Shown here: one piece after another, positions 301 through 52,840 of the stretch
How positions within the stretch are numbered: position 1 is the stretch's first letter
How the letters are laid out: each line of letters begins with the position of its first letter
Source: Pseudopyrenochaeta lycopersici
Lineage: Eukaryota > Ascomycota > Dothideomycetes > Pleosporales > Pseudopyrenochaetaceae
Reading direction: 5' to 3'
Assembly (NCBI GenBank): GCA_003313425.1
Contig: NHZP01000042.1
Span: 124,001-188,000, forward strand
DNA: 64,000 bases
Program-made: the position numbers and the translations under genes
The notes under the pieces: model-generated
What the model was told of the DNA's origin: nothing
The model's database searches: none
Seen by the model: the letters and a program-made list of their open reading frames with translations, nothing else

Positions 301-326
301 GCTTCGGAGTTTCCTAATCAACTTTG

Positions 327-5570: not shown

Positions 5571-6129
5571 CATTCCGTGTTGCTGAACAAAATTGCTCGT
5601 TTGATTCATAGGTTTCCATTGTGTTGGTGTACGGACGTTCGATACCGATAAATCCAGCTTGTAAAGCGCTAGGCCCCGAACTAACGTACGCGCTTAGTGG
5701 ACGCCGTGGACGCCGTATGCTACGAAGTTACGGTCACCATTCCAACGATCTCACACATGGCTCAACCGTCTAGTCTGCGGTCAGGCGTGCAAAGACCAAT
5801 CTGCATGCCCCACAAAAACTGACTCAGTGGTTACTATTCTTACAATTCTCCGTCTTGGTCCGACGCTACCTGAACCCTTGGGTTCGATATAGTCTGTTCT
5901 GTTATAGTCTTGCGAACCTTTTGCTCGTGGCTCATGAATTACTACTTTGGGACGGTTAGATTCAGCGACAGTCTACCTACCGCGCTATGTAGGTAGATAC
6001 GCGTAAATCAAATTAGGTGATTGGTTCTCATCAGGAAGCTGTTACGATCCTGAGGAACACCGAACGTAGGGCGACAATTACGAGCCAGTGCGGCACGGTC
6101 GCGGCACGGTCGACCCACACGGAAAGAAG
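5571..6129. other. intergenic, promoter side of the hydrolase gene
   Basis: No gene seen. There is a small hairpin at 5972-5997 (TCTACCTAC / GTAGGTAGA) and a short direct repeat of CGGCACGGTCG near 6092-6112. Confidence 0.4.
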
Positions 6130-24425: not shown

Positions 24426-25433
24426 AGGCCGGACGAGACAATCTGGATTGATTCAATTTGCATCAACCAAAGCGACAAGCTCGAAAAGTCACAGCAAGTT
24501 GGCATGATGTGCGACATTTATCGGAGTGCTCGGAGAACGATCGTCTGGCTTGACCCGATGGAAGACCCGATGGAAGGCGCTGACGCGGCATTTTCACTGG
24601 TAGAGAGTATTGCATCCGGAGTCTCTAAATGGATTTCAGAGCCCGATGATCATCACTTAGCTTGGAAACGATACCTGTATGGGCAGATAATGCAATACGA
24701 CTTCCGACAAAGAGCGCTGGCCCGCCTCTTCCATCAACAATATTTCCTCAGAACTTGGATCCTCCAAGAGATTGTATTCTCCAAGGTTGTCCATATTCGG
24801 TGCTCCGGATCCGGGCTCAGCTGGGACAAGCTTGCAACGGCGATTCTCACTATTCATCATCAAAATTACCAGGGGCTGTTGATGTCCTCTGACATGATAC
24901 GCGGCGTTCAAGCGGGCGTGTTGATTGAAATCGGTTGGCTGTGCAACGCAAGGAAGATGTTCAACACACCTGGCAACTTCAACCCATTCCAGCTAAGCGA
25001 TATTCTTTCTCAGTTCTCGTTTCTCCTGGTAACAGATCCAAGGGACACGATATTCGGCATCCTGAATCTGACAACGGCGAAAGGCGAGCCGGAACTTGTC
25101 CCAGATTACGCTGAGGATGTCGATGCAGTGGAAGTTTTCAAAAGAACGGGATCATACTTGCTACGAATAAGGGAGCTCGACGAGGTACTCTACGCTGCGG
25201 GCATTGGATATCCACGACGAACCGCCAATTTACCTAGTTGGTTGCCAGATTGGACATCACAGCCAACAACGAAACGTCTCCGGTTCACAAAGAGCCTAGA
25301 AGTCTATCACACATCCGGAAAGAAATCTGCTTCAATTATTCGCCTCGACCCGGATACTATTTCTGTTTCAGGAGTCACTAGTGTGGTCGATGCGAATACA
25401 GTAGCGCATATCAAAACTGACCACGGCAAATAG
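24426..25433 (+). pseudogene. HET-domain protein, 5' and 3' incomplete
   Basis: The frame is open from just after a TAG at 24423. It reads ETIWIDSICINQSDKLEKSQQVGMMCDIYRSARRTIVWL, the core of the HET (heterokaryon incompatibility) domain, then the typical YFLRTWILQEI and DPRDTIFGILNL segments. The usual N-terminal YEALSYVWG block is not found upstream in frame. AATAG at 24421-24425 could be an intron acceptor, in which case an upstream exon has decayed. The product ends after about 335 residues, whereas family members are usually 500-700. HET proteins trigger cell death after fusion of unlike hyphae. Confidence 0.75.
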
Positions 25434-25544: not shown

Positions 25545-26609
25545 TCACTCATCCTCCCAATTAGAATAGTCTCCTTCAGAAGAAACACAACATATCCCAC
25601 AGAAACTAACGCTTTCCCCTTCTCGGCTAGTAGCTATAATAGATGCGACTAGCGAGGATGCAGTTGGGCGTAATTGCTGTTCTGTAGAGAGCATTTGTCG
25701 AGTCCAGCCAAAGGCTCGATCGTCAAACGAGTTCCCGATTCCTTCTAGTTCTGCAACAAAATCTGGAAAGACATCAAGATTTGTGCGAATAAACGCCTGC
25801 CGTGATCCGCGCTGCATGAGAAATTCGTCCATGTCCTGAACAGTCTTGCCTTTAAGAACCACAATCATCTCCATGAAGACAACGCCTAGGCTCCAGATGT
25901 CAGACATTGTGTTTCGAGGCTCAAACCGCGCAACCTCAGGCGCGCAATATCTAGGAGTCATCCCGTTCACCATGCTCATCGTGGTGCTGCCGTTTGCATC
26001 TGTGAAGTCGAGAGATAAGCCAAAGTCAGCAAAAAAGACTCTTCCACAGTTGACGAGAATGTTGCCTGGCTTGATATCTTTATGGCGAACGTTCTGCTCA
26101 TGTAGAAATTCAAGTGCCGTGGCTAGGCAACCAAAGAAGGTTCGCAGCTCCGGAATATTAGAATTGTTAGTACGCGTTAAATAAGCGCCTAGGTCCATCT
26201 CAGCAACTGGAGACATTATTAGACTAATGTACTTCGGATCCGTGTAGCTACCAACAAATTCCACGATGTGGTGATGCTTCAGGCGCTTCAGAATTTCGAT
26301 CTCAGCGATGAACTGCTTTATATCTTCCTTTTGTCGACCCCCAAAGGCTAAACTCCGAGGTACCTGCTTCTTCGCGTACTCTTTGAAGCTGATCAAGCTC
26401 AGCACTCTATCGACCTGTCCAAATCCACCCCTACCCAAGATTCCTTTCGTCTCAAATGGAGGTGACTCGCCTTGCTTGTAATAGCAATGCTGCCCTTTTT
26501 CGCCTTTTTCTAGGTCCAGCGACTTCGTCAACACCAGTGTATTAAACGGATGGCGCCGATTTGGATGATCCATCCAAATATGGCTTTGGATGGCTGAATC
26601 CAGATGCAT
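25545..26609 (-). CDS. Ser/Thr kinase domain segment, with an ATG inside the hAT-1 end
   Basis: A 354-codon ATG-to-stop frame. The first 27 or so residues come from the hAT-1 terminus (element boundary 26535); host sequence resumes at LVLTKSLDLEKGEKGQ. Kinase landmarks by residue: GRGGFG 59-64, lysine about 80, alpha-C glutamate about 103, HKD 176-178 with D178 as catalytic base, DFG 195-197, then an APE motif near 222. HKD replaces the usual HRD but keeps the base. All catalytic residues are present, so a free kinase could be made if a promoter in the transposon end is used. That is not demonstrated. Confidence 0.8.
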   Translation of the reverse strand: MHLDSAIQSHIWMDHPNRRHPFNTLVLTKSLDLEKGEKGQHCYYKQGESPPFETKGILGRGGFGQVDRVLSLISFKEYAKKQVPRSLAFGGRQKEDIKQFIAEIEILKRLKHHHIVEFVGSYTDPKYISLIMSPVAEMDLGAYLTRTNNSNIPELRTFFGCLATALEFLHEQNVRHKDIKPGNILVNCGRVFFADFGLSLDFTDANGSTTMSMVNGMTPRYCAPEVARFEPRNTMSDIWSLGVVFMEMIVVLKGKTVQDMDEFLMQRGSRQAFIRTNLDVFPDFVAELEGIGNSFDDRAFGWTRQMLSTEQQLRPTASSLVASIIATSREGESVSFCGICCVSSEGDYSNWEDE

Positions 26610-29373
26610 AATGGATTTGGCGATCCATCCATATGCGGTAGTGTGGCTTCAGCCATCGCCTCCTATTTCCTTAGTTAGCCAGCCCCTGATAACGATGAAG
26701 CTTCGAACGCACTGTTTCTCCCACCTATATCCAAAGCTTCATGATGTCTTCTTTTAAACCCAACTTTCAACGTTCTTTTGACTTCAGTAAGATAAACTTT
26801 GAGCCTCAAGAATCCCGTTAGTATCCAGATATGAAGGCAGCACGTGCCGGATATCGCGCCAAATATCCATCATTAACATCATCGCCGGAACCGTCGTCAC
26901 CATCAGATATCGGCGGCGCCTCCGTAATTGTCTCAGATGTAGCTTCGACGTTATCGGAGGTGTCAACTCTTACTACCGTTCCAACTTTCGACACAGATCT
27001 GAGTAAGAAAGTACAACTTGGCGAGCCGAATCAGTTCGAGCAATCAAAGTTCGACTATCGTGAAGTCGAGTGGGATAGACTGCCTGGCCACACTATACCG
27101 CTTCAGCGATTGACGGGCGGCCTGCGTTCGTGGATATGGCAATTTGGCGTGCCAACTGAAGAGACGGAGACCGGATCACGCTGGTGGCTTTGCATGAAAT
27201 GTCACAAGGTAGATCCGGTGTTTCGAGCCCAGCACAATTACCATTACATGGTCGACAAAGGAAGCAGTAATGCATCTGATCATCTTCACCAAGTCCACAG
27301 GCTTGGGTGGAACAAGAAGACAAAGTCGGTCGAGCAATATGCAGGCAAAGGCTTACTACCACTAGTAAGTCTTGATGCATATAGATCGGCGGAGCAGGCT
27401 ACCCTGAATGAGTTAGCAATCGCCTTCGACGAGGTGCATTTTCGGAAGCTACTCGCACGTTGGATTGTGTACGACAATGTCTCCTTCCGACAGGTGGATA
27501 GTGAGGTCTTTCGCGACTTTATTACCTATCTCTCACCGCGCGCGGGTGTTGCCTTGCCTTGCGGTCGAACTGTGCGTAACTGGATTATGCAGGGGTACCA
27601 AATTCACAAGGCTACTGTGAAAAACGCCTTGCACAATGCTATCAGCAAGATCCACATCGCCTTCGACTTATGGACCTCTGGTAATTGTCTCTCGCTGAAC
27701 GGAGTCACGGCTCACTTTCTGGATGCCAACTCCAAGACGCAGTCGATTCTTCTATCGTCGCCGGAGCAGAGTGAGTCCCATTACGGTGTCGACATCGCAG
27801 ACCAAGTTATCACGGTCATCGAGGACTTTAACATTGCAAGCAAGCTAGGATTCTTTGTGTTAGATAATGCCTTAAACAATGACACGGCGATGGAAGCAAT
27901 CGGAGCAAGATTCGGCTTCAAACCCAAGGAGCGACGTCTTCGTTGTGCTGGCCATATTATCAACCTGATTGCGCGCCACCTTTTATTCGGATTTGACAAG
28001 AAACTTTTCGAATTCGAAGATGCGATTCCAGGAAACATGCGGGATGAATTGAAGCGCTGGAGGAGGACGGGACCGGTCGGCAAAGCTCATAACTTGATTG
28101 TCTGGACTTATTCAAGTCCATCGCGAAGGAATCGCTGGCATAATAAACAACGAGAATATTTTGAGCAGATAGTCGACAAAGACGAGTGGCATACAATAAA
28201 GATTCGCGAACTTCATAGGAGTAATGATACTCGCTGGAACAGTGTCTACGACGAGATTAAGACGCTGCTTCCTCTGCGCGCGCCGTTCGACGACTTCATC
28301 CAAAGTGAGCGCGAGGCTGCTTTAAAGAAGAAGACCAAGAAACATGACAACGATCCCGATGCGGCTCGCAATGCAATCATACAGGATACACTGTCCGAGG
28401 AAGACTGGGCTATTCTTGCTCAGTATGCGAAGCTCCTCGAGCCATGCTGGGAGGCTACCATGGACCTTCAAGGCCGCCCGGGCGATGGGAAGACTTGTGG
28501 ACTCTTTAATGTCATGCCAGACCTCGAGTGTATCGTCGAGCACCTTACCGAAGTGTACAACAATTACAAGGACGCGCCGGCAGCGGCTACCGAAGGTCAA
28601 TGGCATTTTAGGACCCAGATCAAACTTGCGCTCGACAAGGCAGAAGAATATTACGCCAAACTTGACGACTCTCCCGCATATCTTGCGGCAACAGTACTTC
28701 ATCCGAGTTACACTTGGCGCTTCATTGAGCAGAGATGGGCTCGCAAGAAGTCTTGGGTTTTATCAGGCAAGAAGTCCGTCAAGTCGTTGTATGGGCTTCA
28801 ATATAGGAAGCAAGTTGTATCGGAAGCTATCTCACCGCAGAAGCAACGTGAGCCGAACAAAGTCGTTGCTCATCGTCGGCAACATCTTGACAAGGTTCAC
28901 TCGGATGCCCGCAAAGCTACTCCTCAGGATGAGTTCGAGCGGTTCTGCGATCAAGCAATTATTGATGTTAACGACTGCCCAATTCAATGGTGGCGTACGA
29001 TCGGCTTAAAGGAATATCCTCATCTTGCGCAGATGGCGTTTGACATGCTATCTATCCCAGCAATGAGCGATGAACCTGAACGAGTCTTCAGCCATATGGG
29101 ACTCATGGTAACGAAACGTCGTAATCATCTTGAGCAAGATATAATCCAAGCCGCGCAATGTCTCTACTCCTGGGATCGTGCCAGCATTATTGACATGATG
29201 GCGAGCGATCCAGCAATGTAACTAGTCGCAATCACGCTCTTCAGAGATCAAATATAGTTCGGTGGCTTCAGCCTCAAAGACCAATTTGGCTTAGATCCAG
29301 CGATTATCCAAAAGCCATCCAAGCCACCTAATGGATTTGGATCGGCTGGCCGATCCATCCATTTAACACACTG
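26535..29373 (+). mobile_element. hAT-1, complete, 2839 bp, 8-bp target duplication
   Basis: Terminal inverted repeats are CAGTGTATTAAACGGATGG on the left and CAGTGTGTTAAATGGATGG read inward from the right, 17 of 19 identical. The flanks are GTCAACAC at 26527-26534 and again at 29374-29381, the 8-bp duplication expected of hAT transposition. The subterminal 100 bases at each end are rich in GGATGG/CCATCC. It is inserted in the linker just before the kinase domain of the split gene and transcribed opposite to it. Confidence 0.97.
26831..29221 (+). CDS. hAT transposase of hAT-1, 796 aa
   Basis: An uninterrupted ATG-initiated frame. Near residues 115-160 there is a BED-type zinc finger (CMKCHKVDPVF ... 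ASDHLHQVH). The catalytic core has FDLWTSG, VLDNALNNDTAM and the RRLRCAGHIINLIARHLLFG block. The C-terminal hAT dimerisation region reads YPHLAQMAFDMLSIPAMSDEPERVFS, carrying the E of the DDE set. The length is normal for an autonomous hAT enzyme. No stop or shift is seen, so with intact ends the element could be active. It acts in the nucleus by cut-and-paste transposition. Confidence 0.95.
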   Translation: MKAARAGYRAKYPSLTSSPEPSSPSDIGGASVIVSDVASTLSEVSTLTTVPTFDTDLSKKVQLGEPNQFEQSKFDYREVEWDRLPGHTIPLQRLTGGLRSWIWQFGVPTEETETGSRWWLCMKCHKVDPVFRAQHNYHYMVDKGSSNASDHLHQVHRLGWNKKTKSVEQYAGKGLLPLVSLDAYRSAEQATLNELAIAFDEVHFRKLLARWIVYDNVSFRQVDSEVFRDFITYLSPRAGVALPCGRTVRNWIMQGYQIHKATVKNALHNAISKIHIAFDLWTSGNCLSLNGVTAHFLDANSKTQSILLSSPEQSESHYGVDIADQVITVIEDFNIASKLGFFVLDNALNNDTAMEAIGARFGFKPKERRLRCAGHIINLIARHLLFGFDKKLFEFEDAIPGNMRDELKRWRRTGPVGKAHNLIVWTYSSPSRRNRWHNKQREYFEQIVDKDEWHTIKIRELHRSNDTRWNSVYDEIKTLLPLRAPFDDFIQSEREAALKKKTKKHDNDPDAARNAIIQDTLSEEDWAILAQYAKLLEPCWEATMDLQGRPGDGKTCGLFNVMPDLECIVEHLTEVYNNYKDAPAAATEGQWHFRTQIKLALDKAEEYYAKLDDSPAYLAATVLHPSYTWRFIEQRWARKKSWVLSGKKSVKSLYGLQYRKQVVSEAISPQKQREPNKVVAHRRQHLDKVHSDARKATPQDEFERFCDQAIIDVNDCPIQWWRTIGLKEYPHLAQMAFDMLSIPAMSDEPERVFSHMGLMVTKRRNHLEQDIIQAAQCLYSWDRASIIDMMASDPAM

Positions 29374-29960
29374 GTCAACACTAGGCACTGAGCTCTGACA
29401 AATGATGCTTTAATACTTGGAAGTAAAAAACCTGGAAGACTGCGTTCAGTAACAGGAAACCAGTAATCAGAAAAGCCGACATTGATGAGATTATCAAGGA
29501 GGTCAAGATGGAAAATAGTCCGAAGGATGACATATGTCCGTGGCACCTTACTCCACTGCGGTTGGGAGTGCTTCAGTAGTGATGATATTTCGTTGATCTC
29601 CGAGTCAGTATATGGCTCACGGCTGTTCTGCCTCTCTGAAAAAAAGCTATTCAGCCGACTAGCTAAGACCTGCTGGGTGGTATTGTTGGTCGGTAAGAAC
29701 GAAGAAGAATTTAGCTGCAGTTCTTGTAGCAAGTGTACGGTTGCAGGTGTGTCTTTGTGGGCTTTCTTTTGATCGTAGAGTGTGCGTCCTAGCAAGTGCT
29801 TGCTGTCAAGGGTGTCTTCATGGTCTCTACCAAGTGTCTTCTCTCGCCCCTTTACTACTTGTCGGAGCAGTCCCTTAGCCTTACTATACTTTTTCTGATT
29901 GCAAAGTATAAGTCCGAGCCATTGCTTACTATCAAGTGTATCTTTATGAGCTCTGCCAAG
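29374..29960 (-). pseudogene. TPR-kinase gene, third segment (last TPRs and linker)
   Basis: It begins after hAT-2 with RAHKDTLDSKQWLG, completing TPR 13, carries TPR 14 and a partial fifteenth unit, then the non-repetitive linker (SLLKHSQPQWSKVPRTYVILR, FSDYWFPVT). It ends at QCLVLT where hAT-1 is inserted. The open frame runs on into hAT-1 and stops at 29328. Includes both target-duplication copies adjoining the two elements. Confidence 0.85.
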
Positions 29961-32900
29961 CAGACATGTCGACAATCAAGCTTCTATCAAGCACTTGATT
30001 GTTTGGCTTGATTACATAAGCATTCCAACAAGTCAAGCCTTCCCATAGTAATTTGTTAGCCAAATCAAGCCTTGAGGGAAGGCTTGATTGATAGGCTTGG
30101 CTGGCTTGATGTCTAGGTAGCAATTTTTGATGAAGTTGCTGACTTTGCTGTATGCGCTATATCGCGATAATTTCTTAGGGTTGTCGTTAGCTTAGTAAGC
30201 ATGGCACCTTACCTAGCTATCCACTATCTCAACTTTGACGCGTTATTATATATTTTTGAGCAGCTCTACCTGCTCAATTTTAGTGTTGTTACTTGATCTC
30301 TTCGTTAATATGGCACTACCTAGCCTAAAACACGCCCGCAATAGTACTACTCGCAGCAGTACTATTGTTCCTAACAAGCGCGTCAAAGTCGCTGCTCGAG
30401 GCACTTCTACGCGACCTGCTAAGGTTGATAATAGCCAGCAGCTATCACAACGTCTATCACCGCGTAAAGCCCTAGGTACCGCATCCCAGCCGTCCGAGGC
30501 GCCCACGTTCGAGTCGCAGTTGCGCGAATCCCAGCTTGAAGGCGCGATTGCACCGCCCACTGAGGGCAGCAAAGCTGTTACAGTGGCTACAGCAGAGGAC
30601 AGCAACAGTGGTGGTAAGGAATTTGATGAGCACCTTACAGACGACTATAACGGTATTGATTGGACGCGTTTACCTAAATATATGAAGCCGTTAGCTACGC
30701 AGAGAGGAAAGAAGAGCTGGGTATACCAACATGGCTATCGCGTCGCGCTGCATAAGGACCCATCTAGGATCTTCTTCATCTGCCGCTTTTGCCATCAACG
30801 CAAGATTATAGACGCTGGTGGCCCTGGTGTTTATGAGACAACGCAATCAACGTCAACCTCAGCGCGCCACCTCGAACAGCAGAAGCGCGGCCATAACCAT
30901 CAGGCGCCTGGCAAGGCAATATACGAAACGAAGAGTTGGCTACGGAGCGTCCTCAAGGATGGCAGGGTTAAGGTGTCCCAAGACGTCGCTAACGAGCTTG
31001 CTGGCTTCGATATTCAGAAGTTTCGACTCGCCGCTGTCAGCTGGTTGGTAGAGAATAACCATCCGCTCAAGGAGTTTGAAACACCTGCTTTTCGCCAGTT
31101 GGTCGCAGCAGCAAACCCACAAGCAGAAGCGGCTTTATGGTCTGCCCATAGTAGCGTTTCTCTATACGTTATGCGGCTCTACGACTATATGTTGCCTCGG
31201 GTTGTCGCTGAGCTGTCGCAATCACTTAGCAAAATCCATATTAGCTTTGACGGCTGGACGACTAAAGGCGGCAAGCGTGGCTTCTTGGGAGTGGTTGCTC
31301 ACTACGTCGATTGCTCTGGCGACGTTAAGGACTTGCCTATCGCGCTGCCGCAGCTAATAGGCACTCATAGTGGTGAGAGGATGACTGAAGTTGTTAGTAA
31401 AATACTGCAGCAGTTTGGTATTAGCCCGCTTACTGTTGGCTATTTTGTACTCGACAACGCCAGAAATAACGACACCGCCGTTCTCAACCTCGCGCAGCAG
31501 ATGGGCTTTATCGCACCCCATCGCCGCCTCCGCTGCGGCCCTCATACACTCAATCATATCGGCCAGACACTGCTCCAGGGCAACAACGATGACGCTTTTG
31601 ATAACGACGTTAGCCAGCTCGCAGACGAGAGCAACTTCATGCGCAATTGGAGACAAGATGGCCCACTTAGTGTACTGCTAAGCGTTATCAACCACATTAG
31701 AACCCCACAACAGTACACGCTTTTTGCTGACTTTCAGCGTCTCGCCCACCGTGAGCTACCAGTCAACGCTCCCGCTGAGGACCGCAAAATACTTGAACCA
31801 GTCAAGCCAGTTGTTACGCGCTGGAACTCGTACCACTCCGCTTTTGAACGTGCTGTCAAACTGCAGTCGGCTGTTAACGCATACGCCAACCATCATATAC
31901 GACGCGTGCGAGACGAAGACACGTACGCGATAAGCAGAGGCAACAAACTGCCCGACGTGCAGCCGTGGATGCGATCTGACGGACTAACAGCTGCTGATTG
32001 GGCAGTAGTTACCGAATATATAGATGTGCTGAAGCCGCTGAAGTCAGCAACAAAGCGTCTTGAAGGTCGCGGCAGAAGCGGTCGCTATGGCTCTATAGCT
32101 GACATTATCCCAGTATTTGAATATATATTAACTTACTACGAGCAGCGTGTCAAGTCTTACGAGGCAGTTGACTATAACGCGCATGACGAGGCCCCTGAAG
32201 ATCATCTAGCAATCAACCTTAGAGCCGCCTGGGCAAAAGCCAGCGAGTACTACTCTAAGCTCGACCTCTCTCCAGCGTACTACGCGGCCACGATACTCCA
32301 TCCATACTATAAGCCATACTGCGACACCTCATGGAGTGACAAGCCAGAGTGGCTGAAGGCAAACAACCGCGCGTTCCACGCGCTATGGGCTGATTACAAC
32401 ATCCTGCCGCACTCAGCAAAGCGGCCAAAGGTCATCTCTAGCGACATGGACGACGCTATCGATAGCCTCATCGACCCCAGCACCAGTGTCACTAATAACG
32501 TGGGCGAACTAGATGAGTTCGAGAGGTGGAAGAAATGCGAGCCAAGGGTGGAGAAGGACCATGATCACGCCAAGTTCCCAATAAAATACTGGTTAGGGCT
32601 GCGCAGTCGCTACCCTAACCTTAGCAAGCTAGCGATTGACGTCCTCTCTATACCAGCTTCAAGTTGTGAGTGCGAGCGTATGTTCAGTGAACTTGGCGAC
32701 CTTCTTGAACCCCGAAGGCGATCAATCAAACCTCAGTTACTAGCTGCTATACAGTGCGTTAGACGGTGGCGCAAAGCTGGCTTAGATCAGGGTAACAGTG
32801 CTACTAGGGCAACAATAGCTGATGCTGAGATAGAGGCCATGTACGGCTTATGTGATTGGGATCAAGACAGCGAGTAATTTATATGGGCAAGCAATCTACA

Positions 32901-33053
32901 ATACACCAAACTATCAAGCCACTATCAAGCTACCAAGCCAAGCTGCCCTCTATTTACTCTATCAAGCTGAACAAGTCAAGTTTGCAACACAAGAACAAGC
33001 CTCAAGCCAAGTTTGAAGCCGAGGCTTGATCGGCTTGATTGTCGACATGTCTG
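29961..33053 (+). mobile_element. hAT-2, complete, 3093 bp, 8-bp target duplication
   Basis: The ends are perfect inverted repeats of 21 bases beginning CAGACATGTCGACAATCAAG. The flanks are CTGCCAAG at 29953-29960 and 33054-33061. Both subterminal regions hold about ten copies of TCAAGC/GCTTGA in either orientation. Inserted in the thirteenth TPR of the split gene, in the opposite orientation. It differs in family from hAT-1: no similarity of ends, and low protein identity. Confidence 0.97.
30310..32877 (+). CDS. hAT transposase of hAT-2, 855 aa
   Basis: The first ATG is at 30310; the frame extends further upstream only from a TTG. The Ser/Arg-rich N-terminus (TTRSSTIVPNKRVKVAARG) looks like a nuclear signal. 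A BED-like finger follows (CRFCHQRKIID ... ARHLEQQKRGH). The core motifs are FDGWTTKGGKRGFLGV, VLDNARNNDTAV and RRLRCGPHTLNHIGQ. The C-terminal dimerisation block reads YPNLSKLAIDVLSIPASSCECERMFSE. No interruption is seen. Likely a functional enzyme for its own ends. Confidence 0.95.
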   Translation: MALPSLKHARNSTTRSSTIVPNKRVKVAARGTSTRPAKVDNSQQLSQRLSPRKALGTASQPSEAPTFESQLRESQLEGAIAPPTEGSKAVTVATAEDSNSGGKEFDEHLTDDYNGIDWTRLPKYMKPLATQRGKKSWVYQHGYRVALHKDPSRIFFICRFCHQRKIIDAGGPGVYETTQSTSTSARHLEQQKRGHNHQAPGKAIYETKSWLRSVLKDGRVKVSQDVANELAGFDIQKFRLAAVSWLVENNHPLKEFETPAFRQLVAAANPQAEAALWSAHSSVSLYVMRLYDYMLPRVVAELSQSLSKIHISFDGWTTKGGKRGFLGVVAHYVDCSGDVKDLPIALPQLIGTHSGERMTEVVSKILQQFGISPLTVGYFVLDNARNNDTAVLNLAQQMGFIAPHRRLRCGPHTLNHIGQTLLQGNNDDAFDNDVSQLADESNFMRNWRQDGPLSVLLSVINHIRTPQQYTLFADFQRLAHRELPVNAPAEDRKILEPVKPVVTRWNSYHSAFERAVKLQSAVNAYANHHIRRVRDEDTYAISRGNKLPDVQPWMRSDGLTAADWAVVTEYIDVLKPLKSATKRLEGRGRSGRYGSIADIIPVFEYILTYYEQRVKSYEAVDYNAHDEAPEDHLAINLRAAWAKASEYYSKLDLSPAYYAATILHPYYKPYCDTSWSDKPEWLKANNRAFHALWADYNILPHSAKRPKVISSDMDDAIDSLIDPSTSVTNNVGELDEFERWKKCEPRVEKDHDHAKFPIKYWLGLRSRYPNLSKLAIDVLSIPASSCECERMFSELGDLLEPRRRSIKPQLLAAIQCVRRWRKAGLDQGNSATRATIADAEIEAMYGLCDWDQDSE

Positions 33054-33786
33054 CTGCCAAGTGTCTTCTCTCGCCCCTCCATTGCTTGTTGCAACAGCTC
33101 CTCAGCCTCACTATACTTCTCTTGATCATAGAGTGTGCGTCCTAGCAAGTGCTTGCTATCAAGGGTATCTTCATGGTCTCTTCTAAGTGTCTTCTCTCGC
33201 CCCTCTACTACTTGTCGAAGTAGCCTCTCAGCCTTACTGTACTTCTCCTGGTCGTAGAGCGTAAGTCCTAGCCATTGCTTAGTGTCAAGTGTGTCTTCAT
33301 GGTCTCTTCTAAGTATCTTCTCTCGCCCCTTTACTACTTGTTGGAGCAGCTTCTCAGCCTCACTGTACATCTCCTGGTCGTAGAGCGTAAGTCCTAGCCA
33401 GTGCTTGGTGTCAAGGGTGTCTTCATGGTCTCTACCGAGTGTCTTCTCTCGCCCTTTTACTGCTTGTTGGAGCAGTCCCTTAGCCTCACCGTACTTCTTC
33501 TGATTGCAAAGTATAAGTCCGAGCCATTGCTTGCTATCAAGGGTGTCTTCATGATCTCTAGTAAGTGTCTTCTCTCGCCCCTCTACTGCTTGCCGGAGCA
33601 GCCTCTCGGCCTCACTGTTCTTCTCCTGATTGTAGAGTGTAAGTCCTAGCCATTGCTTGTTATCAAGGGTGTCTTTATGGTCTCTACCGAGTGTCTTCTC
33701 TTGCCCCTCTACTACTTGTCGGAGCGGCCCCTCGGCCTCACTATACTTCTCTTGATCATAGAGTGTGCGTCTTAGCAAGTGCTTGC
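33054..33786 (-). pseudogene. TPR-kinase gene, second segment (TPRs 8-13)
   Basis: Pure TPR coding: five full 42-residue units and most of a sixth, for example KQWLGLTLYNQEKNSEAERL then LRQAVEGREKTLTRDHEDTLDS. Bounded by hAT-2 on the left and the Copia 5' LTR on the right. The units are so alike that the DNA is a 126-bp tandem repeat. Confidence 0.88.
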
Positions 33787-33947
33787 TGTTGGGATTACAT
33801 AAACAGACAGACCCCTGCTAGCGCCATCTTTATATGTAGCACTCAACCGACTAGACGTGACACCGACCTCTGACAATAATGAAGACAATACCTATCATGT
33901 CGATAGTCTCCTCTCCTCATCGTGCCGAAGAGCCTGTAAATCCAACA
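33787..33947 (+). repeat. 5' LTR of the Copia element
   Basis: 161 bp with TGTTGG...CCAACA ends. It differs from the 3' LTR at a C/T and a T/G position about 120-130 bases in. It should hold the element promoter; TTTATATG near 33828 is a candidate TATA. Confidence 0.93.
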
Positions 33948-33963
33948 GGTTATGAGCCCGGGT
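33948..33963 (+). promoter_or_regulatory. Primer-binding site matching the initiator tRNA-Met anticodon arm
   Basis: GGTTATGAGCCCGGGT begins at the base after the LTR. Its complement contains GGGCTCATAACC, the conserved anticodon stem-loop of eukaryotic initiator tRNA-Met, not the tRNA 3' end. That is the half-tRNA priming known for Drosophila copia and yeast Ty5. The same 16 bases follow the LTR remnant at 9568. Confidence 0.8.
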
Positions 33964-34000
33964 TCAGCGCCTATTTTCATACCTGATTCGAGCTTGGCCC

Positions 34001-34385
34001 CCACTCGCAGCAATCTTCAAAGCCTGCCACTCGCAGCAATCTTCAAAGCCTGCCACTCGCAGCAATCCTCAAAGCCTGCCACTCGCAGCAATCCTCAAGC
34101 CTGCCACTCGCAGCATTCCTCAAGCCTGCCACTCGCAGCAACCTTCAAAGCCTGCTCCGGCAGCAACACCAAAAACCCGTGCGCAAACTTAGCTCTACAC
34201 AGACGACCCAGTCTTGCCTCAGGCAGGAGCCCTATTGCCCCTGAGTAACGAGCAGATTTCCCGGCATACACACACACACATACTTGAAGCCCGCGCGCAA
34301 ACTTCGCTCTGTACAGACGACCAAGTTGTACCTCAGACAGGAGCCTTATTACCCCTGAGCAACGAGCATGTTTCCCGGCACTCCA
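34001..34385 (+). repeat. Tandem repeats in the Copia leader
   Basis: About six units of 25-26 bp (core CACTCGCAGCAATCTTCAAA then GCCTGC) run from 34002 to about 34157. They are followed by two copies of a block of about 80 bp, about 115 bp apart (each with ACAGACGACC, CAGGAGCC and TTTCCCGGCA). They lie between the primer site and the polyprotein start. Confidence 0.85.
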
Positions 34386-34634
34386 CCGGCACCCCACCTG
34401 GGGACCCCACTCAATTTCCTTTTGCTCTGCACAGACGTTCATCTCACAATTCAAGCAGGAACCCTCTGAGAAATAAACCAAAACAAAATCTCCTCGCAAA
34501 CACAACAAAAAAAAAAACAATTAAAACTATTACGACCCAATTCCTTAGACGATCAAGTCATCCGAGTTTTTTTTTTCAACGGCCAGATGCCATTGCAAGG
34601 CCCACCATAGAGGAACGTGGCCCTCGAGACATAA

Positions 34635-37600
34635 ATGCAACAAGATCCTTTCGAACCAAATCCAGCGCCGATGGCACCCCAGACACGAGCCCAACAACGC
34701 GGTTCCGGTACCACCAACGACGTTCCAAGCTCCTCCGGCACGATCAACGTATCCACCAACCAAACACTCCAACCTCTATCTCATCGTCAACAGCCTCTAC
34801 ATGGTCCCCTTCAACGAAGACTCGAACTCGAAGAACCTGCCGTTGAAGTTGAAGTAGCCAGACTCTTCGGCTCCGGCAGCAACTACACACACACTAAGTT
34901 TCCTCAGCTACAAGGGGCATCCAACTGGGCTGAGTTCGACGAGGCACTACAAAACGCTGCCCGAGCCGAACACGTCCATAAGCTACTCGACCTCCCTGGG
35001 ATGCCAGCTAGCATCACAGATCCTTCCGAGCCCCCCGACGGCAGCGACACCGAGATATGGAACAACTATGTTCGGCGATGCGCTAGATACGAAAGAGCCA
35101 ATGATAACCTGCTCGCGGGCATAAAGCACAACCTGTCCCCTTACATGAAGGAGAAGGTCAGAGGCATTTATCACGCAAATGAGGTCTATCGGATTCTCCG
35201 GGACGAGTCCCAGCAGCGGGGAGCAAATCTGCTAGCCGAGGAAATCGAGGGCTTAATCCACGACAACTTAAACCAACACAAAGGGGTACAGGACTACTCA
35301 CAGACATTCATGTCGCGAGTCAACAAGATCCGGCGCATGAACCTGTCCTGGCACCTTCCTGAGGAACTACTCCAATTGTGGTTCCTCACCAATCTCGGCG
35401 AATCCTTCAGCACCTTTCGTTCCACACTCTACCAACACTTCAGCGTGGCAGGCGTAGGAACAGGCCAAACGCTCTCCCTCCAAGAAACCATGTCCCGGGC
35501 CACCGACGAATGGTCTCGCATACAATCGGAACAAAAGACCTCGGCCTACCTGGCCAGCGGCTCATTCCGATCTGGCGGAAAGCGACCCGGCAGTAACACC
35601 CTTAGTAACTTACAAAATTACAAGCGACCTACCATTAATCAGCAAAACCCAATAGAACGCACTTGGAAGATCCCAGTTACTGCAAGACCCCACGAACAAA
35701 ACCTTTGTAGCGTCCATGGCTGGATCCCTGGCCGTGGCAACCACAATGATGCGGAATGTCGCTTACAGCAAGAAAAGAAAGCGTTCATGACCAGCACCGA
35801 TAACAGTGCTGAGCTCTCATCAGCGGGCCCAGAGGACAACGAACAAGTACTACTGAATTGGCCTGAAGGCATGAACACTACGTACATTGCAGGCTTCGAA
35901 GAACCCGAATCCTATGCCTCTATCAATGAGATTACTACCAAAGTTCCTCCGCGTCTCAATAGTGCTAAATCCCTAGACTGGCTACTCGACAGCGCTGCTG
36001 GTCGCCATCTCTGCTGCCAACGCGAGATGTTCAGCGACTTCCAGGCGTTCCCGAAGCCTATACCAATGCGAGGCGTAGGAACCGGAGCAGAAGCCCTAGG
36101 GGAAGGCACTGTACCTATCATAGTACAGCGAGTCAACAACACGCAACGAATAGAGTTTAAAAGAGTACTATATGTTCCCTACATGACGGTAAACCTGATA
36201 TCTGTCAGCGTCATCACAAGCCAGCCTGGCATGGGCTATTACCAGGACTCCCGATGCGCCCGCATCACGAAGCGGCACCAAGGGAAAAACACCCTGATCC
36301 TCTTGGGTTCTGTTCATGGCGTCTTCCGGAAGCTCCGGTACTCAATTAAGGAATCTCTTGAACTCTGGAATTACGCCACAGAAACACCTAGTGGTACGAT
36401 GGCCTTTGTTACCGAGCACACCACTCCTGCCATCTCACTCATGGACCTCCACAAACGGATGGGTCACCTCAACTACAAGACCTGCAAGACTCTAGCCAAA
36501 CAACTGGAGATACCGCTCCTGGACGACCGGACCGACCTACTCTGCGCCTCCTGTGTCCACGGCAAAGGCCATGCCCAAAACCACATGGCATTAGTAACCC
36601 GCGCCACGCGACGAGGCGAGCGCCAATTTGCGGATCTTGGGGGGCCCATCACGCCGCCTACCCCTAACGGCGAAGCTTACTACCTCCTGATCATCGACGA
36701 CTACAGCAGGCGCCCACGACTTTACCTCCTAAAACGGAAGTCTGACGCGACACACTGGATCAAACTCGATACAGCACAGGTAGAAGCACACACTGGACTC
36801 AAGGTCCTCTACTACCGCACCGATAACGGTGGAGAGTTCAGAAACAAGCAACTCATCATACACTTTCAGAAACTAGGCACACAACCAGAACCTACGGCTC
36901 CCTATGCCCACGAGCAAGTCGGCGCAGTAGAACGAGTTCACAGAACTCTCTGGGGACTGGTGCGGGCAGTCTTTCATGACAGCCAACTACCACTCGAACT
37001 CTGGGGAGAGATCCTCCGAGCAATCGTCTACATCTGGGAACGATCACCACAGTCCGCTCTCAACGGCCTCTCCTCTTATGAAGTTTGGTACGGCTATAAA
37101 CCTACCGTTCACTACTTCCGGCGTCTCGGGTGTCAAGCCCACAAACTAATCCCTAAGGAGAAACACCCCAAGAAACTCGACAGTCGCACCAAACCTTGCG
37201 TGCTAGTTGGCTATGAGGCTGAAAATATATACCGACTCTGGAACCCCTCTACCGGTGAAATCGAGCGCGCCAAAGAAGTATTATTTGACGAGAATGTCCG
37301 CCTCAAGCACTCGGCAGAATACAAGCTCCCCTCTTGCTCTGCCATGTCTGCGGCCATTCCGACACCCGAAGAAGTCCTCCCTGCTAAACAATTAGCTCGG
37401 TTCCCACAAGTGCCCGCTCTAAAACCTACCACAACTCAGGACCTCACGGCACGCGTTGAGGGGGCGAATCGGGATCAACTACAACGCGACCTTGATCTGA
37501 GTCCTGCTGAGCTCCAACAAGTCCTTGACCTAGCCGCCAACCCAATAGAGCCAGTCAACCTTGAACAGAACCCCAAACGTCACCGCTCGGCCACAGGGGG

Positions 37601-39380
37601 CGCCAAAGAAAATGAAATCAACTGCCTTGAGGTCCTCAATCAACCATGGGCTTTCCTAGAAGACATCAAAGACCGCATCCACCAACTCGACCTCCCGCCA
37701 CTGCCGTCCTTCCCACTACTTGAACAATGCAGACCTAGGAGTTGCCGACAGCTAGCTATAGAAGCCTTCCATGCCGCCGTGTCCTTTGACAACAACGATC
37801 TCGAAGCATACGGCAATACAGTCCAAGGCCAGCTGCCTGAACCCCTTGAACCTCAAACCTACGAGCAGGCAATAAACGGTCCATATCGAGACCAATGGAT
37901 CAAGGCAATGCAAGAAGAAATGAAATCCCTAAGCCTCAATTGCACATGGGACGAAGTTCCTAAGACCCAGCAGATGAACCTACTCAGTGGCAAATGGGTA
38001 TACAAGATAAAGCGAGGCCCTGACGGCGAAATCAGCAGATTTAAGGCTCGTTGGGTCGTCCGCGGGTTTGAGCAACAACAAGGCATCGACTTCTCAGAAA
38101 CCTTTGCGTCAGTAGTACGACAGAAAACCTACCGCGTGCTGTTCGCACTGGCAGCCATTCATGACTGGGAAATTGAGCAAATGGACGTTAAAACCGCCTT
38201 CCTCTACGGGCCCATTGACACCGAAGTCTTTGTAGAGCTCCCCACTGGATTCACCAAGAACGGAACAGTCTGCCGACTACGGAAGGCCCTGTACGGTCTG
38301 AAGCAAGCCCCAAGAATCTGGTACCAAACACTCCAGAAAGCGCTACAAGAGATGGGGTTTAAGAGGTCAGCATACGACGAGGCCGTTTTCTTGAACGGAG
38401 ACACCATCCTGGTAGTCTACGTCGACGACATGCTACTGTTTGGCCCCGACAAGGAACGCATTCAACACACCAAGAATCAACTACACTCGCGATTCGAAAT
38501 GAGCGACGAAGGACCCTGTAAACACTTCCTAGGCATGCAGATCTACCGAGATAGGGAGAACCGGAAGATCCGCCTAAGCCACAGCACCTACCTACGAAAG
38601 GTACTCACACGCCTAGGCCTTGACAACCTCAAGAAGAACGCAGTGCCAATGAACCCCGGGATGTTCCACAAGCCACCTGAGGACAACTACATCTGCGAGA
38701 AGAGATTACGCTACGACTACCAATCTCTGATTGGCTCTCTAATGTTCGGCATGATCGGAAGCCGGCTAGACCTAGCCTACCCAGTATCTCTGCTGAGCCG
38801 GTTCATGGTCAACCCTACACAACAGCACTATGACGCGGCAAAGAAGGTGCTGCGATACGTCTCTGGAACCCTAGACCTTGCACTAGAATTCGACGGTAAT
38901 AAGGACCAAGAGATCATAGGATGGTGCGATGCTGAGTGGGGATCCGACTGTACTGACAGCGTTTCGACAGAATGCTATATCTTCACTCTAGCAGGAGGTG
39001 CAGTCAGCTGGAAGAGCCGGAAGCAATCTGTAGTGTCGGTCTCTAGTACGGAGTCTGAGTATATGGCGCTGTTTACGGCAAGTTTAGAAGCAGCCTATCT
39101 CAAGGGACTGCTGGAAGAGCTTGGACATCCGGTTAGTCAAGGCATACTAATCTGCAGTGACAACCGAGGAGCCAAAGACTTGGTCGACAACGCCAAACAC
39201 CATGAACGCACAAAGCATATCCGGATACGATACCATAAAACCCGGGAGCTTCAAGCCGACGGCACCGTCAGAATCAAATGGGTGCCACGGGAAGAGAACA
39301 TGGCGGACATGGGAACCAAGGCATTACCACGCGAGCCACTAGAACGCTGGCGACTAGCCGCAGGCCTCGTGCCGCACTAA
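34635..39380 (+). CDS. Copia Gag-Pol polyprotein, 1581 aa
   Basis: One frame from the ATG at 34635. Gag-like N-terminus of about 400 residues with a degenerate CxxH...C finger (CSVHGWIPGRGNHNDAEC). Protease core LDWLLDSAAGRH, with DSA instead of the usual D-S/T-G. Integrase with an HHCC finger (HKRMGHL ... CASCVHGKGH) and DDE residues in FADLGGP, YRTDNGGEF and AVERVHRTLW. Reverse transcriptase with KARWVVRGFEQ, MDVKTAFLYG and YVDDML. RNase H with WCDAEWGSD, SSTESEYMAL and CSDNRGA. No stops or shifts. Expression as a single polyprotein is typical of fungal Copia elements. Confidence 0.96.
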   Translation: MQQDPFEPNPAPMAPQTRAQQRGSGTTNDVPSSSGTINVSTNQTLQPLSHRQQPLHGPLQRRLELEEPAVEVEVARLFGSGSNYTHTKFPQLQGASNWAEFDEALQNAARAEHVHKLLDLPGMPASITDPSEPPDGSDTEIWNNYVRRCARYERANDNLLAGIKHNLSPYMKEKVRGIYHANEVYRILRDESQQRGANLLAEEIEGLIHDNLNQHKGVQDYSQTFMSRVNKIRRMNLSWHLPEELLQLWFLTNLGESFSTFRSTLYQHFSVAGVGTGQTLSLQETMSRATDEWSRIQSEQKTSAYLASGSFRSGGKRPGSNTLSNLQNYKRPTINQQNPIERTWKIPVTARPHEQNLCSVHGWIPGRGNHNDAECRLQQEKKAFMTSTDNSAELSSAGPEDNEQVLLNWPEGMNTTYIAGFEEPESYASINEITTKVPPRLNSAKSLDWLLDSAAGRHLCCQREMFSDFQAFPKPIPMRGVGTGAEALGEGTVPIIVQRVNNTQRIEFKRVLYVPYMTVNLISVSVITSQPGMGYYQDSRCARITKRHQGKNTLILLGSVHGVFRKLRYSIKESLELWNYATETPSGTMAFVTEHTTPAISLMDLHKRMGHLNYKTCKTLAKQLEIPLLDDRTDLLCASCVHGKGHAQNHMALVTRATRRGERQFADLGGPITPPTPNGEAYYLLIIDDYSRRPRLYLLKRKSDATHWIKLDTAQVEAHTGLKVLYYRTDNGGEFRNKQLIIHFQKLGTQPEPTAPYAHEQVGAVERVHRTLWGLVRAVFHDSQLPLELWGEILRAIVYIWERSPQSALNGLSSYEVWYGYKPTVHYFRRLGCQAHKLIPKEKHPKKLDSRTKPCVLVGYEAENIYRLWNPSTGEIERAKEVLFDENVRLKHSAEYKLPSCSAMSAAIPTPEEVLPAKQLARFPQVPALKPTTTQDLTARVEGANRDQLQRDLDLSPAELQQVLDLAANPIEPVNLEQNPKRHRSATGGAKENEINCLEVLNQPWAFLEDIKDRIHQLDLPPLPSFPLLEQCRPRSCRQLAIEAFHAAVSFDNNDLEAYGNTVQGQLPEPLEPQTYEQAINGPYRDQWIKAMQEEMKSLSLNCTWDEVPKTQQMNLLSGKWVYKIKRGPDGEISRFKARWVVRGFEQQQGIDFSETFASVVRQKTYRVLFALAAIHDWEIEQMDVKTAFLYGPIDTEVFVELPTGFTKNGTVCRLRKALYGLKQAPRIWYQTLQKALQEMGFKRSAYDEAVFLNGDTILVVYVDDMLLFGPDKERIQHTKNQLHSRFEMSDEGPCKHFLGMQIYRDRENRKIRLSHSTYLRKVLTRLGLDNLKKNAVPMNPGMFHKPPEDNYICEKRLRYDYQSLIGSLMFGMIGSRLDLAYPVSLLSRFMVNPTQQHYDAAKKVLRYVSGTLDLALEFDGNKDQEIIGWCDAEWGSDCTDSVSTECYIFTLAGGAVSWKSRKQSVVSVSSTESEYMALFTASLEAAYLKGLLEELGHPVSQGILICSDNRGAKDLVDNAKHHERTKHIRIRYHKTRELQADGTVRIKWVPREENMADMGTKALPREPLERWRLAAGLVPH

Positions 39381-39495
39381 CCACGACCCTTGCTGCTACT
39401 CTTTTTCTTCCTTGGATGACTTGAGAAGTTTTTTAACGAGAGCAGCATATGTACGGTTGTCTCTTCCACCTTTACGGGCTCTGTCTGAGGGGGCG

Positions 39496-39656
39496 TGTTG
39501 GGATTACATAAACAGACAGACCCCTGCTAGCGCCATCTTTATATGTAGCACTCAACCGACTAGACGTGACACTGACCTCGGACAATAATGAAGACAATAC
39601 CTATCATGTCGATAGTCTCCTCTCCTCATCGTGCCGAAGAGCCTGTAAATCCAACA
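39496..39656 (+). repeat. 3' LTR of the Copia element
   Basis: 161 bp, near-identical partner of the 5' LTR, followed by the CTTGC duplication at 39657-39661. The G-rich tract just before it (39488-39495) is the likely polypurine primer. Confidence 0.93.
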
Positions 39657-40580
39657 CTTGCTATCAAGAGTATCTTCATGGTCTCTTCCAAGTATCTTCT
39701 CTCGCCCCTCTACTGCTTGTCGGAGCGGTTTCTCGGCCTCACTATACTTTTCTTGATCATAGAGTGTGCGTCCTAGCAAGTGCTTGTTGCCAAGGTTGAC
39801 TACATGGTCTCTACTGAGTGACCTTTCCTGCTCCTTCACTGCATGTCGGAGCAGCCTCTCAGCCTCGCTGTACCTCTTCTGATAGTAGAGTATGAGTCCA
39901 AGCATGTGCTTGCTAGCAAATGTGTCTTCATGGTCTCTACCGAGTGACCTCTCCTGCTCCTTTACTACTTGTCGGAGCAGTCTCTCAGCCTCATTATACT
40001 TCTTCTGATTGCAAAGTATAAGTCCTAGCCATTCCTTGCTATCAAGTGTATCTTTATGGGCTCTACTGAGTGTCTTCTCTCGCCCCTCCACTGCTTGTCG
40101 GAGCAGCCTCTCAGCCTTGCTATACTTCTTCTGACAGTAGAGTATGAGTCCAAGCATGTGCTTGCTAGCAAGTATGTCTTTATGGTCTCTTCCAAGTATC
40201 TTCTCTCGCCCCTCTACTACTTGTTGGAGCAGCCCCTTAGCCTCACTATACTTCTTCCCGTTGCAAAGTATAAGTCCTAGCCATTGCTTGCTGTCAAGTG
40301 TATCTTTATGGGCTCTACCGAGTGTCTTCTCTCGCCCCTCTACTACTCGTTGCAACAGCTCCTCAGCCTCATTGTACTTCTTCTGATAGTAGAGTGTGAT
40401 TCCAAGCATGTGCTTGCTAGCAAGTATGTCTTTATGGTCTTCTCCAAGTGTCTTCTCTCGCCCCTCCATTGCTTGTCGGAGTGGTCCCTCAGCCTCACTG
40501 TACCTCTTCTTGTCATAGAGCGTACATCTTAGTTTGAACTCCTTTTTCCCAATATTTCGCAATCTATGCCTTGAGAACAT
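39657..40580 (-). pseudogene. TPR-kinase gene, first segment (start and TPRs 1-7)
   Basis: ATG at 40580, a short lead (MFSRHRLRNIGKKEFKLRC), then seven TPR units alternating KHMLGLILYYQKKYSEAE and KQWLGLILCNQKKYSEAK types. It ends at DTLDSK where the Copia element enters; the frame then continues 35 codons into the LTR and stops at 39552. Alone it could give a TPR-only protein of 342 residues. The first unit lacks its N-terminal part, so an upstream exon may be missing. Confidence 0.82.
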
Positions 40581-41214: not shown

Positions 41215-42774
41215 CTATAACGTGGGTCCCCACCTGGTGCACAGGTGGCACTGGCGCTGCGCAGACTGAAAGGACTCCGGCCCAAGACAGTCAAGCAACT
41301 GGCGAAGAGCGCAGTGCTGCCGGTGGCGGACTATGCGTCGCCCGTGTGGTACCCGATCGCGACGCACGAGATGAAGCAGCTCCTCATGCAGGCGCAGAGG
41401 GTCACGGCGCAGACGGTCATCAGGGGATTCCGCACGGTCGCGGGCGCGATTGCGGAGGTGGAAGCAGGCCTGATCCCCATGGAGCAGAGACTGCGCAATC
41501 AGACGATCGCGTTCTGGGTGTCGCTCCACAAGCTCGGCCAGTCCCATCCGCACTGGATGCTCAAGCGACAGCGGCTCTGCACGAAGCACCGGTCACCGCT
41601 GATGCGAACGGCAGAGATGTGCGAGGAGGTCCGAATGGACGATGTGGTGGAGGTCAAACCGTATGCGTGCCCGCCGTGGGTAGCCAGGCCCGAGGTGGTA
41701 CTCTGCGAGGGTGAAGAACAGGCGCGAGACATCATCGAAGACTACAGGCCAGGACAGGTGGACATCTTCGCAGACGCATCAGTGCGGAACGGACGAGCGG
41801 GCATTGGCATATATGCAACACCGTCCGGCGCATCCATCTCGAGGACGGTGGCCAGCCCGGATCAGGCGGACGCACATCTCACGGAGCTATTGGCGATCAG
41901 CGAGGCGGCCAACTGGCCTTGGGATCCATCGTGCACTGCGATGGACGAAGCAGGGTCGCCAGTGCCGGCCTCCCACGTACGAATCTTCTCGGATGCGCAG
42001 TCGGCGCTTCTGTCGGTGCAGAGTTGGAGGGCAAGTGCGTGCCAGGAAGTTGTGGGCGAAATCATCAAGAAGCTCCGCATGAGCAATATCACGCTGTACT
42101 GGGTGCCTAGCCACTCAGGGCTAGAGGGAAACGAGAGGGCCAACTGGCTTGCCAAGAATGCGACGAGAGCAGAGAGCGAGGAACCACCGCAGCGAGAAGG
42201 CCGCCCATGGTATCTCGTGAAACAAGCGCTGAAGAAGGCAAAGATCACAACAGGACCGCTTCTGGCCGGACGACCTGATGTAGGCAAGTTCACGAGGAAG
42301 ATTGACGCGGCGCTCCACCTAGGCAAGGCGGCAGCACTGTACCAGCAACTGAACAGCAGTGAGGCCGCGATCCTCGCGCAGCTCCGGACGTGCATGACGA
42401 GCCTTAACATATATCTCTACAAGATCAAGGCAGCAGAATCAGCGGAGTGCGAGTGTGGACTGATCGAATCGATCCCGCACTTTCTCTTCTGCTGTAGAAG
42501 ATGGACAGAGCAAAGACGGAAGCTACGGCTTCGACATGGAGAGCGGTTCGGGGACCTTTCGTACGCTCTTGGAGGCTTTTCGAGCAGACAGGAAGGGGGC
42601 GAAAGTATCGATGGACCGATAGAGCGTTGGAAGCCAGATATTGAGGTGGTGCGAGCCACGATCCAGTTCGCGATGGAGACGAGACGTCTACAGACTGTCA
42701 GCCAAGACACAGCAAGCATTGAAGAAGACAACAACGAGCGACAATGGCTACGAATTCCTACGCCCACGCCTTAA
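41215..42774 (+). mobile_element. Tad1-like LINE, 5'-truncated (RT tail and RNase H)
   Basis: An open frame without its own ATG encodes the end of a reverse transcriptase (LRPKTVKQLAKSAVLPVADYASPVWY), then RNase H (VDIFADASVRNGRAGIGIY, LTELLAISEA, VRIFSDAQSALLS, YWVPSHSGLEGNERANWLA) and a terminal finger (CECGLIESIPHFLFCC). This order is that of Tad1/I-clade fungal LINEs. The RT palm and ORF1 are missing, as expected of 5' truncation during target-primed insertion. ERAN replaces the usual ERAD, so one RNase H metal ligand is lost. No clear A-tail or duplication was found. Confidence 0.85.
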
Positions 42775-52413: not shown

Positions 52414-52840
52414 AAAAGTAAATAATAGTACTAAGATAGCATAGGCAGAACTGTCGGCGCTGAATCAGCCCGTCTGTAAGATAAGAAGCAGAGGTGTTTT
52501 TTTTCGAGATTCGAGAAAATTCGATGTAGAGGGAGATATATTCACGTGTCGCTATAAAGTCCTAGGCTTAAGGCGCCATCGGGACTGCTACCGCAAAGCC
52601 CTACCGATCTGCTACCGTTTCTGCAAGGTGTTAGAATCTCAACTTTACTTTCGCCCTGAATAGTAAGAATGTGGTTTTTTAGAGTGCGCATAGCAAATGC
52701 ATACCTAGAATTGATATAATAAAAACAATAATACTTAGGTATGTTCAAGAGATAGTTAGAAGGCGAAGCGTATCAAGGCTGACGTATTATTCCAATACTC
52801 TATAGGCTACCTTCTTTTGTGACTACTTCAATCTAAACCC
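52414..52840. other. intergenic, 3' flank of the GH3 gene
   Basis: No gene seen. Confidence 0.4.

What the first reader, a model, noticed from the sequence alone, without database searches (positions are those of the whole stretch)
25545..40580. One TPR-kinase gene cut by three intact transposons of three different families
Seen directly: hAT-1 (duplication GTCAACAC), hAT-2 (CTGCCAAG) and Copia (CTTGC) each have perfect duplications, and the host codons on either side join in frame at all three sites (LVLT|KSLDL, KTLG|RAHKD, LDSK|HLLRR). The host remainder is one 3213-nt frame. Three independent, non-nested insertions in one 3.2-kb gene with no other decay suggest an insertion hotspot, relaxed selection, or a very recent burst. 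All three element frames are open.
Basis: partly seen in the sequence, partly recalled or inferred. Interest (0 to 1): 0.87.

Follow-up and report, generated by a model that had tools for sequence, protein, structure and literature searches.

The report
Fungal TPR-kinase gene broken by transposons
In an unnamed fungus, one member of a family of repeat-plus-kinase genes has been interrupted by three separate jumping genes; the case is very clean, but its neighbourhood is packed with such elements, so it looks like an ordinary example of how fungi lose dispensable genes.

Summary
On the minus strand one 3213-nt frame (TPR array, linker, protein kinase) is split by hAT-1 (26535-29373), hAT-2 (29961-33053) and a Copia element (33787-39656). 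The 8-, 8- and 5-nt target duplications are perfect and the four pieces hold no internal stop. It was one gene: the 126-nt repeat register is kept exactly across Copia and hAT-2, 190 of 194 alignable homologues run straight through the hAT-1 site, and uninterrupted paralogues exist in the same genome.

A hotspot in this gene is not supported: nearby non-repeat DNA carries as many repeat blocks per kb (1.13 against 0.93, hand-set blocks), and the other hAT-1 and Copia copies whose flanks were fetched do not sit in this gene family. hAT-1 looks very recent, Copia fairly recent (2 of 161 LTR sites differ); hAT-2 cannot be dated. The kinase belongs to a modular fungal family, in which at least two other members here are decayed. 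Best reading: serial, recent insertional loss of a dispensable gene in a transposon-rich island.

The parts
39657..40580 (-). host piece A: N-terminal part of the TPR array (includes one copy of CTTGC)
   Evidence: frame; TPR_10 E 3.3e-66
39657..39661 (.). target site duplication CTTGC, right copy
33787..39656 (+). Copia element with 161-nt LTRs 33787-33947 and 39496-39656
   Evidence: frame 34635-39380; Pol_BBD, gag_pre-integrs, rve, SH3_retrovirus and RVT_2 found in three pieces searched apart
33782..33786 (.). target site duplication CTTGC, left copy
33054..33781 (-). host piece B: middle of the TPR array
   Evidence: frame; TPR_10 E 1.8e-51
33054..33061 (.). target site duplication CTGCCAAG, right copy
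29961..33053 (+). hAT-2 with perfect 21-nt TIR and open transposase frame 30310-32877
   Evidence: Dimer_Tnp_hAT E 4.3e-20
29953..29960 (.). target site duplication CTGCCAAG, left copy
29374..29952 (-). host piece C: last TPR units and linker
   Evidence: frame; TPR_10 E 1.3e-9; homologues
29374..29381 (.). target site duplication GTCAACAC, right copy
26535..29373 (+). hAT-1 with imperfect TIRs and open transposase frame 26831-29221
   Evidence: Dimer_Tnp_hAT E 1.9e-15; 18 full-length copies including this one
26527..26534 (.). target site duplication GTCAACAC, left copy
25545..26526 (-). host piece D: protein kinase domain and C-terminus with stop codon
   Evidence: Pkinase E 3e-42; frame
26527..26609 (-). 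duplication copy and 75 nt of the hAT-1 end that give the kinase frame an ATG at 26609 (354-aa chimeric frame)
   Evidence: mechanical frame only, no evidence of expression

Best explanation
A paralogue of a fungal family of repeat-plus-kinase proteins (TPR array, conserved linker, C-terminal protein kinase) has been inactivated by three independent insertions of different transposon families in a transposon-rich genome island. Each insertion made its own target duplication (shown). The gene tolerated them because it is one dispensable member of a redundant, fast-turnover family (inferred), and because insertion density in this island is high (shown as a rough density). The insertions are recent relative to the family's divergence, so the host pieces have not yet lost their frame (inferred). 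hAT-1 is probably the youngest (inferred from near-identical copies). The order of Copia and hAT-2 is unknown.
For: Perfect 8/8/5-nt duplications and stop-free phase. 126-nt register kept: spacings 3353-3101=252 and 6127-5875=252 (spacings). 190 of 194 alignable homologues, of 240 held, have exactly the expected one residue between pieces C and D. Uninterrupted paralogues: a 1067-aa frame on C54 with kinase 76-77% identical, and shorter ones on C26 and C8. Other members decayed: C25 (frame break, TAG) and C19 (several stops; 30 of 63 private C>T/G>A changes in CpA/TpG context). Repeat density outside the gene 7 blocks in 6.2 kb against 3 in 3.2 kb (blocks). hAT-1: 10 other full-length copies at a rounded 100%, 10 of 10 with perfect 8-nt duplications, all different in sequence. 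Kinase dN/dS 0.13 to C54: constraint over most of its history.
Against: No second isolate was available, so neither the empty allele in this species nor the frequency of the insertions is shown. Dispensability is inferred. Repeat blocks outside the gene were set by hand from repeat matches, several adjoin each other and not all were classified as transposons; if only two were independent insertions, three in the gene would have P about 0.09. The absence of any stop or frameshift is slightly surprising at the point estimate of the Copia age (P 0.05-0.2) and would be incompatible with its upper bound.
Confidence: 0.88

Rival explanations
1. The gene (its chromatin or its tandem repeats) is a true insertion hotspot that draws several transposon families.
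For: Three insertions in 3.2 kb; two lie inside the 126-nt tandem array. The other two hATs of the window, about 44630-47480 and 56634-59531, show no matching 8-nt duplication at their ends (scan; sequence read by eye), so the hAT insertions with intact duplications are both in the gene.
Against: Density outside the gene is about as high. Flanks of 10 hAT-1 copies (200 nt each side) and 20 Copia flank loci gave no match to the gene's pieces (the one tblastx hit is to a flank of a paralogue locus, not to its frame). Linker and kinase adjoin directly, with no element between them, in the fetched paralogues C54, C26, C8, C2, C25 and C19.
Confidence: 0.07
2. The kinase part is still expressed as a free protein from the hAT-1 end (354-aa frame from the ATG at 26609), so the insertion separated the kinase from its TPR part instead of killing the gene.
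For: The kinase domain is complete and matches Pkinase over nearly its whole length (1-259 of 263). The hAT-1 end supplies an in-frame ATG. The same kinase module occurs with other N-terminal partners.
Against: No transcript or promoter evidence. An in-frame ATG within 80 nt is not remarkable (inference, not tested). The low dN/dS (0.13) is a pairwise value dominated by the time before the insertion.
Confidence: 0.04
3. Assembly artefact: repeats were wrongly placed between pieces.
For: The assembly is in 188 contigs and all three elements are multi-copy.
Against: Misassembly does not make three perfect target duplications of the right lengths that also keep frame and repeat register.
Confidence: 0.01

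Closest known systems
hAT superfamily DNA transposons (two families here)
   Same: 8-nt duplications, terminal inverted repeats, open transposase frames with the hAT C-terminal dimerisation domain
   Different: Nothing unusual; the two transposases are 29% identical to each other.
Ty1/Copia LTR retrotransposons
   Same: 5-nt duplication, LTR ends TGTTGG...CCAACA, integrase piece before reverse transcriptase piece
   Different: Short 161-nt LTRs; other copies (C41, C109, C5, C64) with 98-100% identical RT regions carry LTRs only 91-94% like these
Fungal NLR (NOD-like receptor) repertoire with TPR, ankyrin or WD40 arrays
   Same: Internally similar TPR_10 repeats, and a modular family that in other proteins joins the same kinase to NACHT-type or HeLo domains (fungal NLR architecture described in passages of PMC4986451, PMC9815663 and PMC12258605)
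   Different: No nucleotide-binding domain in any of the four pieces. Repeat units here average 66% identity (10 units; 81% in C54), below the 85% high-conservation class of PMC4986451 (passage)
C-terminal PKinase domains in Sordariales NLRs (passage of PMC12258605)
   Same: Kinase at the C-terminus of a repeat or NLR-like protein
   Different: That passage relates its kinases to PRD-4/CHK2; this relation was not tested here

Membership tests
hAT superfamily (hAT-1, hAT-2) | 8-nt target site duplication | tested here: met
   Both perfect; 10 of 10 other near-identical hAT-1 copies examined also have one
hAT superfamily (hAT-1, hAT-2) | terminal inverted repeats | tested here: met
   hAT-2 21 of 21 nt; hAT-1 11 of the first 12 and 17 of the first 19 nt
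hAT superfamily (hAT-1, hAT-2) | transposase with hAT dimerisation domain | tested here: met
   PF05699 E 1.9e-15 and 4.3e-20
hAT superfamily (hAT-1, hAT-2) | transposition activity | not testable with these tools
   Needs a transposition assay; catalytic residues were not examined
Ty1/Copia retrotransposon | 5-nt duplication and paired LTRs | tested here: met
   CTTGC both sides; 161-nt LTRs, 2 differences
Ty1/Copia retrotransposon | integrase upstream of reverse transcriptase (Copia order) | tested here: met
   rve in 36201-37400, RVT_2 in 37401-39380
Ty1/Copia retrotransposon | tRNA primer binding site | not tested
   No call was made for it
Fungal NLR | NACHT or NB-ARC domain | tested here: not met
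   None in pieces A-D at E 0.001; an upstream exon was not excluded
Fungal NLR | superstructure-forming repeats (TPR, ANK, WD40) | tested here: met
   TPR_10 array
Fungal repeat-plus-kinase family of this report | conserved linker directly followed by the protein kinase | tested here: met
   190 of 194 alignable homologues, of 240 held

The most novel reading that the evidence does not exclude
hAT-1 did not simply kill the gene. By landing exactly between the TPR-linker part and the kinase it may have freed an intact kinase, started from its own terminal ATG, from its repeat-domain control, so that a transposon produced a new stand-alone signalling protein.
Probability: 0.04. Interest if true: 0.6.

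Novelty: new member of a known kind. Interest (0 to 1): 0.2.

Why it matters
It is an unusually legible example of insertional gene loss: three clean insertions, each with an intact duplication, in one frame that can still be read, with uninterrupted paralogues in the same genome for comparison. It also points to a modular fungal family in which one linker-kinase module is joined to TPR, WD40, NACHT-type, HeLo, PH or ENTH domains. It does not change any general idea about transposons.

Tried and rejected
Gene-specific hotspot: rejected on local density and on the targets of other copies. The density test rests on hand-set blocks; 52501-54799 was in no repeat search and was counted as non-repeat, some blocks adjoin, and not every block was classified. 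The left half of the window was also searched but not used in the density test.

Pieces from different paralogues: rejected by repeat register, frame and homologue contiguity.

RIP as the cause of decay here: not supported. In the kinase alignment of six paralogues this gene has 5 of 26 private C>T/G>A changes in CpA/TpG context; the decayed C19 has 30 of 63, and the others C25 10 of 32, C54 5 of 20, C26 11 of 51, C8 12 of 44.

Clean duplications at the other two hATs of the window: none found (scan; one search read by eye; the boundary script gave only matches without matching ends).

Identifying the species: no near-identical named protein. The best kinase hits by E-value are 73-78% identical; one partial named protein (P0109) is 86% identical over 59% of the query. 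The closest named ones are Dothideomycetes by my recollection of the genera. hAT-1's best hit is 97%, without an organism name.

Paper searches (listings seen only) showed no paper on a fungal NLR-like or kinase gene carrying several transposons; inactivation of genes by transposon insertion is itself documented, for example by the title of PMC9783078 (aphid; listing). Passages only were seen of PMC9815663, PMC12258605 and PMC4986451.

Not done: structure prediction, other isolates, expression.

Full report
Observation. The window is positions 124001-188000 of contig C42 of a 62.7-Mb assembly in 188 contigs. hAT-1 spans 26535-29373 between two copies of GTCAACAC, hAT-2 29961-33053 between two copies of CTGCCAAG, and Copia 33787-39656 between two copies of CTTGC. 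Counting each duplication once, the pieces total 3213 nt. With the reading phase carried from piece to piece there is no stop before the terminal one, while the two alternative frames of each piece hold 9 to 36 stops. All three elements have long open frames on the strand opposite to the gene, with hAT dimerisation domains in both hATs and Copia domains in the three pieces of the Copia frame.

One gene. Three independent lines show that the pieces were contiguous. First, the TPR array has a 126-nt period; repeats on either side of hAT-2 and of Copia are 3353 and 6127 nt apart, and subtracting element plus one duplication (3101 and 5875) leaves 252 in both cases, exactly two periods. Second, of 240 homologous proteins held (the best 120 listed of 808 and of 725 found), 194 could be aligned to both the linker and the kinase, and 190 of these have exactly the one expected residue between them, at the hAT-1 site; three are 3 residues and one is 10 residues shorter there. 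Third, the genome holds uninterrupted paralogues: a 1067-aa frame on C54 with TPR array, linker and kinase, and shorter ones on C26 (821 aa) and C8 (697 aa).

What the gene is. Pieces A and B are TPR_10 arrays, piece C ends the array and adds a linker, and piece D is a complete protein kinase domain. No nucleotide-binding domain was found, so it is not an NLR by that criterion; an upstream exon was not excluded. The linker-kinase module is modular: the C2 paralogue has WD40 repeats in place of TPRs, and database relatives have NACHT-type (P0125, P0171), HeLo (P0203), PH (P0144) or ENTH (P0175) domains. By my count 97 of the 120 relatives listed carry TPR_10; that search was seeded with a TPR-bearing paralogue and limited by length, so the share is not a census. 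This resembles the modular NLR repertoires described in fungi (passages of PMC4986451, PMC9815663 and PMC12258605). A role in recognition or cell death is therefore a reasonable guess, not shown.

Age. The Copia LTRs differ at 2 of 161 sites. hAT-1 has 17 other full-length copies, 10 of them at a rounded 100%. hAT-2 has two other full-length copies at 98%; the remaining matches are 72-73% full-length relatives or partial copies. So hAT-1 activity is recent, Copia is fairly recent, and hAT-2 cannot be dated. The kinase piece against C54 has dN/dS 0.13 at dS about 1, the linker piece 0.28, which shows constraint over most of the divergence but not since the insertions. Under neutrality at the LTR point estimate about 1.6-2.9 frame-breaking changes would be expected (P of none 0.05-0.2), 0.2-0.35 at the lower bound and 5.8-10.7 at the upper bound (P 0.003 or less; the indel rates are assumed). 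The lack of decay therefore fits recent insertion without needing selection, and speaks against an insertion as old as the upper bound.

Hotspot or island. From 25545 to 64000 about 29 of 38.5 kb falls in hand-set transposon or repeat blocks based on matches elsewhere in the genome. Outside the gene there are 7 such blocks in 6.2 kb of non-repeat DNA, against 3 in 3.2 kb inside it (P of three or more 0.70; 0.09 if only two of the outside blocks were independent). Ten near-identical hAT-1 copies all have perfect 8-nt duplications of different sequence; their 200-nt flanks show no match to this gene's pieces, and by my reading of the translated flanks two lie in other transposons. Of the Copia copies examined, 8 of 9 solo LTRs and 3 of 4 full copies have perfect 5-nt duplications, and none of 20 flank loci matched the gene (three of the 20 entered only this test). 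The simplest reading is that the gene is hit because the island is hit.

Family turnover. Two other close members are decayed without any transposon between linker and kinase: C25 by a frame break and a stop, and C19 by several stops, the latter with many changes in CpA/TpG context that look like repeat-induced point mutation (30 of 63 private C>T/G>A changes, against 5 of 26 in this gene).

Verdict. It is most likely serial insertional loss of an accessory paralogue in a transposon-rich island. The main open point is whether the intact kinase piece, which gains an in-frame ATG from the hAT-1 end, is expressed; nothing here shows that it is.

Noticed in passing
L032 2672-4873 (C2 paralogue): The same linker-kinase is fused to WD40 repeats instead of TPRs; relatives elsewhere have NACHT-type, HeLo, PH or ENTH domains.
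   Followed up: partly
Copia copies on C41, C109, C5, C64: RT regions are 98-100% identical to the window's copy while their LTRs are only 91-94% identical to it, suggesting exchange of LTRs between subfamilies.
   Followed up: no
window 1-6183: A segment of about 6.2 kb with GDSL-lipase/FG-GAP frames is 99% identical to stretches on C25 and (from 492 on) C43, a large recent segmental duplication.
   Followed up: no
window 6130-6682: Inverted repeat with 130-nt arms, 98% complementary, MITE- or foldback-like, with relatives on several contigs.
   Followed up: no
window 43579-47480: An ankyrin-repeat frame on the minus strand begins at the boundary of a hAT at about 44630, so its upstream part may be cut off; this hAT has similar inverted ends but no matching 8-nt duplication, as also the hAT at 56634-59531 (one search read by eye).
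   Followed up: partly
L035 (C19 paralogue) 4199-5815: Decayed paralogue with RIP-like bias: 30 of 63 private C>T/G>A changes in CpA/TpG context, although hAT-1 has 11 near-identical copies in the same genome.
   Followed up: partly
window 24504-25433 and 12772-13227: A HET-domain frame next to the gene and a separate TPR frame further left, so the region holds several recognition-type frames.
   Followed up: no
window 41245-42774: RNase H frame, perhaps of a LINE-like element fragment (my reading), just upstream of the gene.
   Followed up: no
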